A stretch of DNA of 64,000 nt, taken from Paenibacillus sabinae T27. Lineage in GTDB: Bacteria > Bacillota > Bacilli > Paenibacillales > Paenibacillaceae. The stretch spans positions 2,530,001-2,594,000 of the forward strand of contig NZ_CP004078.1 in assembly GCF_000612505.1 (NCBI RefSeq), in the 5' to 3' direction. Under the pieces are notes generated by a model. That model searched no databases, had not been told where the DNA came from, and saw only the letters and a list, made by a program, of their open reading frames with translations. Shown here piece after piece: positions 39,248-50,645 of the stretch. A program made the translations under genes and the position numbers. Numbering within the stretch: the first letter of the stretch is position 1; each line of letters opens with the position of its first letter.

Positions 39248-40204
39248 ATGTCGAAAATTGCAAGCAAACTGACAGATCTTATTGGAAACACGCCGCTTCT
39301 GGAACTCAGGAGCTTTAGCGGGAAAAAGGAGCTTGGCGCTTCGGTAATCGCGAAGCTGGAATATTTCAATCCGGCGGGAAGTGTAAAAGACCGGATCGGC
39401 TATGCCATGATCAAGGACGCCGAAGAGCAGGGCCTGATCGGACCGGGAACCGTGCTGATCGAGCCGACCAGCGGCAATACCGGGATCGCGCTCGCCTTTG
39501 TGGCCGCGGCCCGCGGATACCGTCTGATTCTAACCATGCCGGATACGATGAGCGTGGAACGCCGCAATCTGCTGAAGGCGCTGGGCGCCGAGCTGGTGCT
39601 GACACCCGGAGCCGAGGGTATCAAGGGCTCTGTCCGCAAGGCGGAAGCGCTGGCGGCGGTTACGCCGAACTCGTTCATTCTGCAGCAGTTCAACAATTCG
39701 GCCAATCCCAAAATTCACCGCCAGACAACTGCAGAGGAAATCTGGCGGGATACGGGCGGTAAAGTGGACATTTTCGTTAGCGGAGTCGGAACCGGAGGTA
39801 CGATAACCGGCGTCGGGGAAGTTCTGAAAGAACGGAATCCGGATGTGAAGATTGTGGCCGTAGAGCCGTTCGATTCACCGGTTCTCTCGGGAGGAAATCC
39901 GGGTCCGCACAAAATTCAGGGCCTTGGGGCCGGGTTTGTACCGCTCATCCTGAACCGGGAAATCATTGATGAGGTATTCAAAGTTCGAAATGAGGAAGCG
40001 CTGGAAACGGCGAGAGAATTGGCAGCCACGGAAGGATTGCTGGTCGGTATCTCCTCGGGCGCTGCCGTCTTTGCAGCCTCCCAGCTTGCCAAGCGGAAAG
40101 AGAACAGAGGCAAGAATATCGTCGTTCTGCTGCCTGATACCGGTGAACGCTATTTATCTACCGTATTGTTTCAGGAACCGGCGCAGACAGGAGGATTGTC
40201 ATGA
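39248..40204 (+). CDS. cysK: Cysteine synthase (O-acetylserine sulfhydrylase)
   Basis: This PLP enzyme of 318 residues is expected to make cysteine from O-acetylserine and sulfide. The PLP Lys47 is in NPAGSVKDR, the substrate loop is EPTSGNTGIA, and the phosphate-binding loop is GVGTGGTITG. ATG 39248 follows TGGAGGA with 7-base spacing; the longer frame to 39167 lies inside terminator T2 and is rejected. Its stop overlaps the start of the next, nitrogenase-like gene by 4 bases (ATGA), which couples cysteine synthesis to that reductase. It probably captures sulfide, or possibly another nucleophile, produced by the system. Confidence 0.93.
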   Translation: MSKIASKLTDLIGNTPLLELRSFSGKKELGASVIAKLEYFNPAGSVKDRIGYAMIKDAEEQGLIGPGTVLIEPTSGNTGIALAFVAAARGYRLILTMPDTMSVERRNLLKALGAELVLTPGAEGIKGSVRKAEALAAVTPNSFILQQFNNSANPKIHRQTTAEEIWRDTGGKVDIFVSGVGTGGTITGVGEVLKERNPDVKIVAVEPFDSPVLSGGNPGPHKIQGLGAGFVPLILNREIIDEVFKVRNEEALETARELAATEGLLVGISSGAAVFAASQLAKRKENRGKNIVVLLPDTGERYLSTVLFQEPAQTGGLS

Positions 40205-41541
40205 GCAAAGTCATCGAGAGACCGCGCTATGTATGCGCCCTCGGCGGCGCGATCGGCACTATCCAGTCCCTGCCCCGGGCGATCCCGATTCTTCATTCCT
40301 CTTCCGGCTGCGGCGGCAACCTGGCGGGGGCTTTGAGCGGAGCTTCGGGCTATAACGGCGGCAATTATTGCGGCGGTCAGGCGCTCCCAAGCTCGAACGT
40401 ATCCGAAAGAGACATCGTGTTCGGCGGCGAAGGCCGGCTGCACGAACAGATCGAGAATACGCTGAAGGTTATGGACGGGGATTTGTATTTTGTCGTCACG
40501 GGCTGCATGGTCGAGATGATTGGCGACAACGTTCATGCCGTGACCAAACGGTTCAAGGACGGTAAATTGCCGGTACTGGCCGCGGAAACAGTCAGCTTCA
40601 AAGGCAACTCCTATTACGGCTACGAGCTGGTATTGGAAACCTTGTTCCGTGAATTTGTAGAACCGGCTCCGGTGAAAGATCCCGGGACTGTGAATTTGTG
40701 GGGAGTCGTTCCCATGCAGGACGTGTTCTGGAAAGGAAATCTCGGCGTACTGAAAGGCTTGCTGAAGAAACTGGGCTTTGAAACGAATACCTTCTTCGGC
40801 CAGGGCGAGACGCTGGAGAACCTGAAAAATTCCGGAAAAGCCAGCTTGAATATCGTCGTGTCGGAAGCTTACGGGATTGAAGCGGCGAAAGTATTTGAAG
40901 AAGTGCACGATGTTCCCTATATCACGCTTCCTTTACCGGTCGGGGATCACGGAACTTCGCGCTTCCTTCGCACAGTGGGCAAGGCTCTCGGTGTGGATGA
41001 AATTAAGATCGAGAAATTAATTCAGGAAGAAAGAAAAGCCTACTACCCTTATCTGGAGCGACTGGCGGATGTCTACAACGATCTCGATTTCCAGCGCTAC
41101 GCCACCGTGGTCGGCGATCCCAATTATACGCAAGCCATTACCCGTTTTCTTTCCGACGATCTGGGCTGGCTGCCTGAACTGATTGTGATCACCGATATTT
41201 TGGGGGAAGAGCAGAAGGAACGGGTTCTGGCATCATTCGGCGAATATGAATCCGGGCTTCGTCCGGAAATTGTGTTCGATGAGGATGCCTCAAGCGTCGT
41301 AGGCTATATCAATCGTCACTGGCCGCAGAATCAAGGGCAAAAATATTATAAAGGCTTCGCCCCTGGAGTTATTATCGGAAGCGTCATGGAACGCGATACG
41401 GCGGAACAGTTCAAGGTGCCGCTGCTTCCGGTCACTTATCCTATCTCCAACCGGGTGGTGCTGAACCGGGCTTATGCCGGATATTCCGGCGGGCTTACTC
41501 TTGCCGAGGACGTGCTCAGTCTGGTTGTTGCTCACCGGTAA
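40201..41541 (+). CDS. Nitrogenase component-1-like protein, NifK-type
   Basis: This 446-residue protein of the nitrogenase/protochlorophyllide-reductase component-1 superfamily is shorter than NifK. Cysteines at the places expected for P-cluster ligands are Cys12 (YVCALGG), Cys37 (SSGCGGN) and Cys102 (VTGCMVEMIGDN, compare the STTCMAEVIGDD block of NifK). Cys12-Cys37 spacing (25) equals that of NifK Cys70-Cys95. An extra Cys57 (NYCGGQ) is present. It should pair with the next gene as the partner subunit of an Fe-S reductase fed by the NifH-like protein. It overlaps the cysK stop. The substrate is unknown. Confidence 0.85.
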   Translation: MSKVIERPRYVCALGGAIGTIQSLPRAIPILHSSSGCGGNLAGALSGASGYNGGNYCGGQALPSSNVSERDIVFGGEGRLHEQIENTLKVMDGDLYFVVTGCMVEMIGDNVHAVTKRFKDGKLPVLAAETVSFKGNSYYGYELVLETLFREFVEPAPVKDPGTVNLWGVVPMQDVFWKGNLGVLKGLLKKLGFETNTFFGQGETLENLKNSGKASLNIVVSEAYGIEAAKVFEEVHDVPYITLPLPVGDHGTSRFLRTVGKALGVDEIKIEKLIQEERKAYYPYLERLADVYNDLDFQRYATVVGDPNYTQAITRFLSDDLGWLPELIVITDILGEEQKERVLASFGEYESGLRPEIVFDEDASSVVGYINRHWPQNQGQKYYKGFAPGVIIGSVMERDTAEQFKVPLLPVTYPISNRVVLNRAYAGYSGGLTLAEDVLSLVVAHR

Positions 41542-41583
41542 TGAACCCCATCGTTTTTTTAATGAAAAAAGGAGGCTTGTTTC

Positions 41584-49373: not shown

Positions 49374-49424
49374 TGAGTAGCTAAAAGCGAAAAAATGAAT
49401 CAATTTAGTGGGAGGAAGATGATT

Positions 49425-50645
49425 ATGTCGACGGTGCTGACAAGCGAAGCGCAGGAGCAGCTCAATCATATCCGATACAGCCGGGATACGGTTCATGCCC
49501 ACTCGCCCGCGATCCAAAAGCTGTTCAATCTTGTTATTGATTATGTGGACGATGCGGAGAAAGCCGGAAAGAACGGCACGAAGGTCATCTGGGCCGGCGT
49601 ACCCTGGGCGATGCCCTTGATCTATTCCGCCGGAGCCATACCGGTCGCCTTTTCGGAGGTGGGACGCATCAGCGGACAAGAGGCTATTACGGTCTCGGAG
49701 GATTATTATCAGATGCCCGCAGAAACCTGTTCCATGGTGAAAGCAACCGCGGGGGAATGGCATTTACGAAAACAGGCCGGGACCTCGATCACGCGCATCT
49801 TCGGTTCATCCTCCGGCTGTGAACCGTATAACCTGGCGTGGGAAGTGATGAAGAAGGAAGGCTTCGACGTATATACGAGCGACGTTGTCTATCGCGCTCC
49901 CGGCGTTGAAGGCGAACGTTATGAGGAACTGGTCCGATATTTTGTGGATGAAATCCATGACTTCAATGAATGGCTGACTGGAAGCCGGGAAATTGACAAG
50001 GAGAGCCTGCATCGTGAAATCGTCCGCAAGAACTATCTCATGCGCAGAATGCGGGAAATTATGGATTTGCGATTGCAGCACCCGTTCCATGTCAAAAGTC
50101 TGGGCATTATGTACCTGATGAACGGGCTTACCCATTATTTCGGCAAACCGGAGGAATACACCGAAGTATTGGATGCGCTGGTTGAGGAATTGTCCGGTCT
50201 TGAAACCGATGAAGCCGAACGCCAACGGGCGATTCCCTTAATCTGGACAGGCGGCAGCGGCCAGGAATTCGGAATTTACGAAACAATCGACGATGCAGGA
50301 GGGTCGCTGCTCGGATTTGTTAGCTCTCCTTATACAAGGGATTTTCCGGAAGATATCGATCCGGTTGAATCGGTTGCCCGCTTTCAGCTACAGAGTCAGA
50401 TGGCCGGAGCCTCAATATACCGGCGCCACGTTATCGAGCAGCAGGTAGACCGGATTCAGGCGCGAGGACTTATTTTATACGGATATCTGGGCTGCTCGTT
50501 CGGAAGCGTCACCCGCGAGATTTACAGGGATTATTTCCATAATAAAGGGATTCCGAGCATTAATCTGGAAGGAACCTTCCAGGTCGGAGCCCCCAGCGGA
50601 CAACTGCTGACGCGGATTAAAGCTTTTATCGAAATGCTGTCCTGA
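49425..50645 (+). CDS. HgdB/double-cubane-cluster-like protein
   Basis: This 406-residue protein of the 2-hydroxyacyl-CoA dehydratase D-component family includes double-cubane-cluster proteins of unknown physiological role. Cluster cysteine candidates are Cys102 (PAETCSMVKA), Cys132 (SSGCEPYN) and Cys357 (YLGCSFGS). The usual first motif C-x-P-E-L-x-x-A-A-G is replaced by VPWAMPLIYSAGAIPV. ATG 49425 has GGAGGA eight bases upstream; ATG 49395 has no ribosome site. There is a single subunit gene rather than the HgdA/HgdB pair and no CoA-transferase, which argues against acyl-CoA dehydration and for a double-cubane type reductase. A terminator follows. Confidence 0.85.
   Translation: MSTVLTSEAQEQLNHIRYSRDTVHAHSPAIQKLFNLVIDYVDDAEKAGKNGTKVIWAGVPWAMPLIYSAGAIPVAFSEVGRISGQEAITVSEDYYQMPAETCSMVKATAGEWHLRKQAGTSITRIFGSSSGCEPYNLAWEVMKKEGFDVYTSDVVYRAPGVEGERYEELVRYFVDEIHDFNEWLTGSREIDKESLHREIVRKNYLMRRMREIMDLRLQHPFHVKSLGIMYLMNGLTHYFGKPEEYTEVLDALVEELSGLETDEAERQRAIPLIWTGGSGQEFGIYETIDDAGGSLLGFVSSPYTRDFPEDIDPVESVARFQLQSQMAGASIYRRHVIEQQVDRIQARGLILYGYLGCSFGSVTREIYRDYFHNKGIPSINLEGTFQVGAPSGQLLTRIKAFIEMLS

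What the first reader, a model, noticed from the sequence alone, without database searches (positions are those of the whole stretch)
39248..50645. Composite locus: nitrogenase-like reductase plus double-cubane-type reductase bracketed by cysteine synthases
Seen: cysK, NifK-type, NifD-type, ABC ATPase, NifH-like, second cysK, then two HgdC-type ATPases (one fused to an HgdB-like domain) and an HgdB-like protein, all on one strand. Known: NifH-like proteins drive component-1 reductases, including CfbCD and methylthio-alkane reductase; HgdC-type ATPases drive 2-hydroxyacyl-CoA dehydratases and double-cubane proteins, which reduce small molecules such as acetylene in vitro. Inference: a two-engine anaerobic system that liberates sulfide or a thiol from an organosulfur compound and fixes it as cysteine. 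No NifB/E/N/V genes are nearby, so N2 fixation is unlikely.
Basis: partly seen in the sequence, partly recalled or inferred. Interest (0 to 1): 0.95.

Follow-up and report, generated by a model that had tools for sequence, protein, structure and literature searches.

The report
RNA-controlled double-reductase sulfur-scavenging operon
This bacterial operon encodes a nitrogenase-like protein set and a benzoyl-CoA-reductase-like protein set beside two cysteine synthases, sits behind two copies of a conserved RNA hairpin, and likely frees sulfide from organic sulfur compounds to make cysteine without oxygen.

Summary
The nine genes are real, co-directional and correctly named. The genome fits Paenibacillus sabinae T27, whose "nif-like" genes did not replace nifH or nifD (PMC4246453). 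The window's NflDK lies in a clade separate from methylthio-alkane reductase (MarDK): it keeps the P-cluster and [Fe8S9C] ligand positions but lacks MarD's Arg428 in 35 of 35 rows. In 80 related loci the recurrent partners are CysK, a sulfonate-class ABC transporter, NflH, a NifB-like and a NifX-like protein. The "double-cubane" half is better read as one BzdNOPQ-like complex: an ATPase fused to a six-cysteine domain, a second ATPase, and a three-cysteine subunit (HgdB2). HgdB2 is found in 10 of 48 NflD genomes and 3 of 397 genomes of a Bacillota draw. The window has lost its transporter's permeases and binding protein. New here: two tandem copies of a hairpin overlapping terminators precede the operon. 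The element shows compensatory changes in 6 of 7 pairs, matches no Rfam 15 family, and elsewhere precedes ATP-sulfurylase, APS reductase, CysK, MetY, MetK, Nfl and transporter genes. Best reading: an anaerobic sulfur-scavenging operon in a sulfur regulon under RNA attenuation. The substrate, and whether the two reductases act in sequence, are unknown.

The parts
38954..38982 (+). Promoter-like TTGACA-17-TATAAT, 12 of 12 matches
39029..39093 (+). RNA element copy 1: hairpin (about 39032-39052) overlapping the 5' arm of an intrinsic terminator with T-run
39104..39119 (+). TGTGATTTTTATCACA, FNR/CRP-type palindrome (factor name recalled); both half-sites invariant in the 5 leaders aligned
39143..39205 (+). 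RNA element copy 2: hairpin (about 39146-39166) overlapping a second terminator (seen by folding; the simple terminator scan lists only part of copy 1's)
39248..40204 (+). cysK1, cysteine synthase A
   Evidence: TIGR01139 473 bits, cut-off 351
40201..41541 (+). nflK, component-1 beta-type subunit
41584..43122 (+). nflD, component-1 alpha-type subunit; Cys51, 76, 143 (P-cluster), Cys276 and His430 ([Fe8S9C]) at MarD ligand positions
43168..44049 (+). ABC ATPase of the nitrate/taurine/sulfonate class (no NCBIfam model above cut-off among those shown), orphaned in this genome
44078..44959 (+). nflH, NifH-like reductase, 77% identical to R. rubrum MarH
44966..45967 (+). cysK2, second cysteine synthase A
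   Evidence: TIGR01139 428 bits, cut-off 351
46080..46295 (+). Remnant of a permease gene (first 57 codons 67% identical to the P. rhizophilus permease)
46362..48401 (+). HgdC-type ATPase fused to HgdB-type domain; the six BzdN double-cubane cysteine positions are occupied (C326, C365, C394 or C396 by alignment, C557, C587, C620)
48489..49373 (+). second HgdC-type ATPase
49395..50645 (+). HgdB2: exactly three cysteines (C112, C142, C367), invariant in 35 of 35 aligned rows; BzdO-like pattern

Best explanation
The operon at 38954-50645 encodes a NflHDK nitrogenase-like protein set of a clade separate from MarHDK and a fused BzdNOPQ-like protein set beside two cysteine synthases, and it likely works as an anaerobic sulfur-scavenging system that would reductively cleave C-S bonds of organosulfur compounds and fix the released sulfide as cysteine. 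Inferred mechanism: NflH (one [4Fe-4S] cluster, ATP) passes electrons to a P-cluster in NflDK and on to a NifB-derived [Fe8S9C] cluster held by Cys276 and His430 of NflD, where the C-S bond would be cut; CysK would join the sulfide to O-acetylserine. In the second module the ATPases would drive electrons into the double-cubane domain and then into the open [4Fe-4S] site of HgdB2. My working guess, untested, is that this module reduces or deoxygenates the imported compound before NflDK removes the sulfur. The two RNA elements would end transcription when sulfur is plentiful and allow read-through when it is scarce. NflH may also serve other NflDK pairs of this genome, in which I found two NflH for five pairs.
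For: Cluster ligands: MarD C66, C91, C158, C270, H429 and also H375 conserved in 35 of 35 clade rows; the three NflK cysteines in 32 or 33 of 34. Closest solved relatives by sequence are MarH, MarD and MarK; closest fold of the NflD model is MarD 9fmg. Partners within 5 kb of 83 clade NflD genes: CysK 59, ABC ATPase 55, NifB-like 41, NflH 39, binding protein 36, NifX-like 23 (families). Both CysK exceed the cysteine synthase A cut-off. Three full NifB in the genome. HgdB2 in 10 of 48 NflD genomes against 3 of 397 in a Bacillota draw, Fisher 1.9e-8; without Paenibacillaceae 6 of 38, 2.1e-5. In G291 the protein beside the fusion gene is above the SsuA-family cut-off (229 against 163.5). RNA element: 40 of 48 NflD genomes at E<=0.1 against 109 of 398 in the Bacillota draw; at E<=1e-4, 9 of 14 NflD genomes against 15 of 384 others, and 4 of 9 when genomes used to build the model are left out, p 4e-4. 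It heads CysK-Nfl operons, and operons with the fusion and HgdB2 in Pelotomaculum, a deltaproteobacterium and G291.
Against: In T27 nifHDK-like transcripts did not change between N2-fixing and non-fixing conditions (PMC4246453); that tests nitrogen and oxygen, not sulfur, but gives no support to oxygen control. The window lost its permeases and binding protein, so uptake must use another transporter (best own binding-protein match 32% identical), the substrate is internal, or the operon is decaying. 38 of 48 NflD genomes have no HgdB2 match. Six HgdB2 loci without adjacent Nfl (L155-L159, L161) have no RNA element at the head of the HgdB2 genes in the stretches fetched. The second ATPase is not always there: none was seen beside the fusion in L156, L158, L161 or G291, which weakens the four-part BzdNOPQ picture. 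In the Bacillota draw alone the NflD-HgdB2 overlap is one genome besides ours, p 0.095. mixes phyla, uses drafts and is not corrected for kinship. No activity was measured on any member of this clade here.
Confidence: 0.6

Rival explanations
1. Two separate enzymes that merely share a regulon: NflHDK releases sulfide from one compound and the BzdNOPQ-like set handles a different one, each with its own transporter.
For: Fusion and HgdB2 without adjacent Nfl but with permease, ATPase or binding-protein genes of the same classes in L157, L159 and L161; NflD without HgdB2 in 38 of 48 genomes; several element-led transporter genes in one stretch, L293.
Against: One-strand, near-contiguous arrangement in Paenibacillus, Syntrophomonadaceae, Pelotomaculum, Clostridiales Family XIII and a deltaproteobacterium.
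Confidence: 0.4
2. NflHDK is a methylthio-alkane reductase variant that gives methanethiol, and the CysK proteins make S-methylcysteine or simply capture thiols.
For: Cofactor ligands shared with MarD; NflH 77% identical to MarH; corrinoid proteins and URO-D-type methyltransferases in 8 and 10 of 80 loci.
Against: Separate clade; holding the window D with MarD and its orthologue is rejected, AU p 8e-107; Arg428 absent in 35 of 35, Trp195 replaced in 33 of 35, Phe199 to Tyr in 35 of 35; the same genome has a MarDK orthologue, 73 and 66% identical.
Confidence: 0.15
3. In this strain the operon is a decaying relic or now serves internal salvage only.
For: Deletion of permeases and binding protein; P. 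sinensis L035 also shows none between CysK2 and the fusion gene.
Against: All nine genes are open; promoter and RNA elements are conserved in the leaders compared.
Confidence: 0.15
4. NflDK is a cofactor-assembly scaffold like NifEN, or takes part in N2 fixation.
For: NifE is the best NCBIfam hit of NflD (171 bits, far below the cut-off of 505); NifB- and NifX-like genes near relatives.
Against: NflDK is often the only component-1 pair in its locus and has NflH nearby; the NifD and NifE rows form their own group, 100/100, used as root; T27 nifH-like and nifD-like genes did not complement K. pneumoniae mutants (PMC4246453).
Confidence: 0.04

Closest known systems
Methylthio-alkane reductase MarHDK, R. 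rubrum (PMC12552129; outline, Main and Results sections read)
   Same: NifH/D/K-type architecture; all P-cluster and [Fe8S9C] ligand positions; NflH 77% identical to MarH
   Different: NflD 29% and NflK 35% identical, separate clade, Arg428 missing, Trp195 and Phe199 replaced; CysK near 59 and MetY near 12 of 83 clade NflD genes
Isethionate reductase IsrBHDK, R. capsulatus (PMC11423573; abstract, Discussion part 1 and passages read)
   Same: Nfl next to a sulfonate transporter, sulfur assimilation
   Different: IsrD has one P-cluster cysteine and no cofactor ligands; the window NflD has all. The L028 pair of this genome has that Isr-like pattern; true IsrD was not in the tree
Class I benzoyl-CoA reductase BzdNOPQ (PMC11971306; passages read)
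   Same: Two ATPases, one subunit with six ligand cysteines, one with three
   Different: One ATPase fused to the six-cysteine subunit; sulfur gene context; scores below the benzoyl-CoA reductase cut-offs; second ATPase not seen in some relatives
Double-cubane cluster protein DCCP and DCCP-R
   Same: First fold match of HgdB2, nearly level with 2-hydroxyisocaproyl-CoA dehydratase and BzdNO; fusion domain 119 bits to DCCP
   Different: Below the NF040772 cut-off (224 and 80 against 350); HgdB2 has three cysteines in all
Nitrogenase-like genes beside CysK or MetY (PMC3464626) and MarHDK-like genes near corrinoid mlp clusters (PMC10418091); passages read
   Same: The CysK link was noted there
   Different: No BzdNOPQ-like partner and no RNA element in the passages seen
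P. sabinae T27 nif-like genes (PMC4246453; section 12 and passages read)
   Same: Same gene count: two nifH-like and five nifDK-like pairs
   Different: That paper reports the FeMoco ligands not conserved; here Cys276 and His430 line up with the MarD ligands

Membership tests
MarHDK | D subunit inside the MarD clade | tested here: not met
   (window clade 97/99, Mar clade 100/99), AU p 8e-107 for window D + MarD + L027 D; one search warns of long branches
MarHDK | P-cluster and [Fe8S9C] ligands | tested here: met
MarHDK | Arg428 with His429 on Loop I, proposed hallmark (PMC12552129) | tested here: not met
   His in 35 of 35, Arg absent in 35 of 35
MarHDK | Reduction of methylthio-alkanes | not testable with these tools
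   needs purified enzyme
IsrBHDK | IsrD without cofactor ligands and with one P-cluster cysteine | tested here: not met
NifHDK nitrogenase | NifD/NifK equivalog scores | tested here: not met
   136 and 83 bits against 654 and 427
NifHDK nitrogenase | NifH equivalog score TIGR01287 | tested here: met
   425.6 against 394.4; the model does not separate NflH of this kind
Double-cubane cluster protein NF040772 | Equivalog cut-off | tested here: not met
   224 and 80 against 350
Class I benzoyl-CoA reductase (Bzd type) | Six-cysteine plus three-cysteine subunit plus two ATPases | tested here: met
   in the window: (third cysteine C394 or C396); second ATPase not seen in G291, L156, L158, L161
Class I benzoyl-CoA reductase (Bzd type) | NCBIfam equivalog cut-offs | tested here: not met
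   BzdQ 211 and 195 against 380; BzdN 90 against 454
Class I benzoyl-CoA reductase (Bzd type) | CoA-thioester substrate | not testable with these tools
   none of the nine genes is a CoA ligase by family; binding not tested
Cysteine synthase A | TIGR01139 cut-off | tested here: met
   473 and 428 against 351
Known RNA family (Rfam 15) | Gathering score on the element | tested here: not met
   window leader; six element-bearing loci

The most novel reading that the evidence does not exclude
The leader hairpin is a so far undescribed sulfur-starvation attenuator of anaerobes in Bacillota and Thermodesulfobacteriota. It switches on ATP-sulfurylase, APS reductase, CysK, MetY, MetK, sulfonate-transporter and nitrogenase-like operons together. 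In part of these genomes the regulon includes a two-engine desulfurisation line in which a BzdNOPQ-like reductase and a new [Fe8S9C] reductase act one after the other on the same organosulfur compound.
Probability: 0.3. Interest if true: 0.9.

Novelty: new variant of a known kind. Interest (0 to 1): 0.78.

Why it matters
Group IV nitrogenase-like enzymes have few assigned functions. This clade keeps the nitrogenase-type cofactor ligands but changes the residues around them, so it makes a defined test of how the protein scaffold sets the chemistry of the [Fe8S9C] cluster. It offers a testable role for a second iron-sulfur reductase set in the same operon. The RNA element, if confirmed, would be a genetic handle on the sulfur regulon of many Clostridia and Geobacter relatives. 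The comparison also sorts the five nifDK-like pairs of this genome into one Mar orthologue (L027), two Mar-clade pairs (L025, L026), one with Isr-like ligand loss (L028) and this new one.

Tried and rejected
N2 fixation and simple MarHDK or IsrHDK membership were tested and set aside. The plain double-cubane label was set aside after the cysteine counts. Rfam gave nothing at gathering score on the leader; at E<=5 only two matches far below their gathering scores. Reading the metK copy as a known riboswitch was checked with Rfam on L028 (none). Paper searches for the RNA element and for the composite showed no description in their listings; PMC2965389, PMC8632094 and PMC6429828 were only term-searched. 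PMC9147875, PMC3961195, PMC3464626, PMC10418091, PMC11971306, PMC11659671 and PMC12330013 were seen as passages only. Subscription journals and bioRxiv are not in that library, and supplements were not read.

Rows dropped and limits. Trees used 52 D and 51 K rows: 43 and 42 from fetched loci (a list chosen by me, out of 89 and 87 locus rows that passed the length limits), the rest own-genome, MarD/MarK and Nif rows. The program warned of long branches (L028 D, NifD, NifE2; the Mar clade next to Nif). A4 used 39 of 45 pattern sites (L028, L059, L182, L184, L191, L194 left out). The terminator-overlap count used 41 of 45 (L182, L184, L191, L194 left out); 4 of the 41 fail, three of them where my script cut the sequence at an early T-run; its shuffled control used tails not cut at a T-run. 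The pattern fixed ten columns of A4, so their invariance is not evidence. A5 was aligned to the model and leans towards its structure. Model searches scored 18 candidates per genome against 150, and five of the 14 NflD genomes in the draw had supplied sequences to the model (G000, G276, G291, G460, G509); one search repeats the test without them. Downstream genes come from 81 chosen sources rich in Nfl loci, so those counts are no genome-wide census. The simple promoter and terminator scan found 8 promoter-like and 18 terminator-like sites against 10.4 and 13.2 in shuffles, so most of its single sites mean little. Two one-mismatch copies of the motif in our genome were not pursued. The NflD model is weak (pLDDT under 50) at residues 12-51 and 175-180, which include part of the active site.
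Full report
Setting. The window is bases 2,530,001-2,594,000 of a 5,270,569-base, one-contig genome. Three nifH, two nifH-like genes and 16 component-1 genes, which by place and similarity sort into nifDKEN, a second nifEN and five nifDK-like pairs, match the description of Paenibacillus sabinae T27 (5.27 Mb, three nifH, two nifH-like, five nifDK-like pairs; PMC4246453). The match is by description, not by a named record. 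In that paper neither nifH-like gene and none of the five nifD-like genes complemented Klebsiella mutants, and their transcripts did not follow N2-fixing conditions.

Observation. All nine genes are present as described. Upstream lies a 12-of-12 consensus promoter (38954-38982). The ABC ATPase has no partner here. In P. rhizophilus (L033) the order is CysK, NflK, NflD, ABC, NflH, CysK2, permease, binding protein, permease, fusion, HgdC, HgdB. The window keeps the first 57 codons of the first permease (67% identical) and lacks the next 2.66 kb. I call this transporter sulfonate-class: its ATPase is closest to SaoA, nitrate and taurine models, all below cut-off, and binding proteins of related loci belong to NMT1/SsuA families, one below and one above the SsuA-family cut-off (119 and 229 against 163.5).

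The nitrogenase-like half. By sequence the nearest solved proteins are R. rubrum MarH (492 bits), MarK (275) and MarD (216), well above nitrogenase. In maximum-likelihood trees of 52 D and 51 K proteins the window clade (35 and 34 rows) stands apart from the clade holding Mar (13 rows each); support is 97/99 and 100/99 for D, and weaker (94/96 and 93/97) for K. Holding the window D with MarD and its orthologue as one clade is rejected (AU p 8e-107). The residues agree: MarD ligands C66, C91, C158, C270 and H429, and H375, are present in 35 of 35; Arg428, which the Mar structure paper suggests as a Mar hallmark together with His429 (PMC12552129), is a gap in 35 of 35; Trp195 is Met, Gln or Val in 33 of 35; Phe199 is Tyr in 35 of 35. 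A model of NflD (pLDDT 77) finds MarD first among solved folds. So the cofactor site is predicted to be of the Mar kind and its surroundings are not. NCBI's nifH model accepts NflH (425.6 against a cut-off of 394.4), so automatic annotation is likely to call it nifH.

Within the same genome the L027 pair is the MarDK orthologue (73 and 66% identical), L025 and L026 are Mar-clade pairs (L026 beside an O-acetylhomoserine sulfhydrylase-like gene, 494.6 bits, cut-off 495.1), and L028 lacks the ligands, as reported for IsrD. I found only two NflH for these five pairs; the window's is 77% identical to MarH, so a shared reductase is plausible (inference).

Neighbourhood. A scan of GTDB species genomes with 34 aligned NflD gave 480 relatives, of which the best 80 loci were kept and read. 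In these 80, CysK is found in 62, an ABC ATPase in 57, permease in 45, NflH in 44, binding protein in 43, a NifB-like radical-SAM protein in 42, a NifX-like protein in 25, MetY in 15, URO-D-type methyltransferase in 10, corrinoid protein in 8 and the HgdC-HgdB fusion in 6; some contigs end early. Within 5 kb of 83 clade NflD genes: CysK 59, NifB-like 41. The own genome has three full-length NifB. The CysK link itself was noted in 2012 (PMC3464626, passages).

The second half. The fusion's C-terminal domain has a cysteine at each of the six BzdN double-cubane positions; for the third, the BzdN alignment picks C396 and the DCCP alignment C394 (ligand list in PMC11971306). It scores best with DCCP (119 bits) and BzdN (103). 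HgdB2 has exactly three cysteines, C112, C142 and C367, invariant in 35 of 35 aligned rows, the BzdO pattern of an open [4Fe-4S] site. Its model (pLDDT 87.7) matches DCCP, 2-hydroxyisocaproyl-CoA dehydratase and BzdNO about equally. With two ATPases this is a BzdNOPQ-like set with one fusion. The second ATPase is not seen beside the fusion in L156, L158, L161 and G291, and L155 shows HgdB2 alone.

Co-occurrence. HgdB2 occurs in 10 of 48 NflD genomes and in 3 of 397 genomes of a Bacillota draw besides our own, a draw that itself holds 13 other NflD genomes (Fisher 1.9e-8; 2.1e-5 without Paenibacillaceae). In 6 of the 10 it shares a contig with Nfl genes. In the draw alone the overlap is one genome besides ours, G291 (p 0.095), where HgdB2 lies 14 kb from NflD. 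The fusion lies within 0.1 to 2.6 kb of an NflD gene in Clostridiales Family XIII, a deltaproteobacterium, Pelotomaculum and Syntrophomonadaceae, and 3.3 to 5.9 kb away in two Paenibacillus. L157, L159 and L161 have fusion and HgdB2 with transporter genes of the same classes but no Nfl nearby.

The RNA element. The leader holds two copies of a hairpin (consensus GCUGACCAG-NNNN-CUGGAGGC) whose 3' strand is also the 5' arm of a terminator. In folds of 41 sites the 3' strand pairs downstream in 37, against 267 of 820 shuffled tails. A pattern found 60 matches in 31 NflD genomes, against 4 for the reversed pattern. A covariance model matched 114 places in 81 sources; among 99 distinct sequences 99.0% of cells pair, 6 of 7 pairs show changes on both sides, 49 cells against 11.8 shuffled. 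At E<=0.1 it matches 40 of 48 NflD genomes and 109 of 398 of the Bacillota draw. At E<=1e-4 it is found in 24 of the 398: 9 of the 14 with NflD and 15 of 384 others; leaving out five NflD genomes that supplied training sequences, 4 of 9 (p 4e-4). The nine genomes with four or more matches at E<=0.1 all carry NflD; four of them are not training genomes.

Of 101 distinct sites in the chosen sources the nearest labelled gene within 700 bases downstream was ABC transporter 19, CysK 18, NflK 8, NifB-like 7, MetY, Sat, NifX-like, NflH and URO-D 3 each, YeiH-like and MetK 2 each, six others once each, none labelled 23, contig end 1. In genomes of the draw without an NflD match it precedes ATP-sulfurylase (L282, L290, L295), an adenylyl-sulfate reductase alpha subunit (L283, 769 bits, cut-off 557), CysK (L284, L285, L300) and transporter genes. 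It heads operons with the fusion and HgdB2 in Pelotomaculum (L163), the deltaproteobacterium (L165) and G291 (tandem copies, then metK, L307), but not in L155-L159 and L161. In our genome further copies precede metK followed by nflHDK (L028), a PNPOx-like gene (L291) and, as a weaker match (E 0.0024), an SsuA-like gene followed by a nifH copy (L001). Rfam 15 has no matching family. Paper searches showed no description; absence from print is not proven.

Reading. Shown: anatomy, clade, ligand residues, recurrent partners, the co-occurrence counts, the deletion, the RNA element and its neighbours. Inferred: cofactor, electron path, C-S cleavage, sulfide as product, sulfur control, shared NflH, order of the two enzymes. 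I give 0.6 to the sulfur-scavenging reading as a whole and about half of that to sequential action of the two reductases.

Noticed in passing
window 39029-39093 and 39143-39205; L028 12288-12317 (-); L201-L203, L282, L284, L290, L293, L296, L300, L307: Hairpin-terminator RNA element heading sulfur operons across Bacillota and Geobacter relatives; no Rfam 15 match. Binding partner or ligand unknown.
   Followed up: partly
window 39104-39119; leader of metK in L028: TGTGA-N6-TCACA palindrome, FNR/CRP type (recalled), between the two RNA elements and again in the metK leader printed: possible joint oxygen control.
   Followed up: partly
window 45967-46362: Transporter deletion leaving a permease remnant; P. 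sinensis L035 also shows no permease or binding-protein gene at this place.
   Followed up: yes
L027, L025, L026, L028 (own genome): The four other nifDK-like pairs: MarDK orthologue, two Mar-clade pairs, one with Isr-like ligand loss behind metK.
   Followed up: partly
L047, L049, L052-L054, L056, L058, L059, L300: URO-D/MtaA-type methyltransferases, corrinoid proteins or RACo beside this Nfl clade or the RNA element, recalling the mlp clusters of PMC10418091.
   Followed up: no
L028, L296, L307: metK genes directly behind the element; in L307 the sulfonate binding protein and fusion genes follow, in L028 the Isr-like nflHDK, in L296 an unlabelled gene.
   Followed up: partly
L001 168-197, own genome 3,354,542: Element-like hairpin with a U-A outer pair upstream of an SsuA-like binding protein gene that is followed by a lone nifH copy.
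   Followed up: partly
L039, L040, L041, L043, L048, L074, L291: Small PNPOx-like proteins (about 155 aa) recur beside this Nfl clade; role unknown.
   Followed up: no
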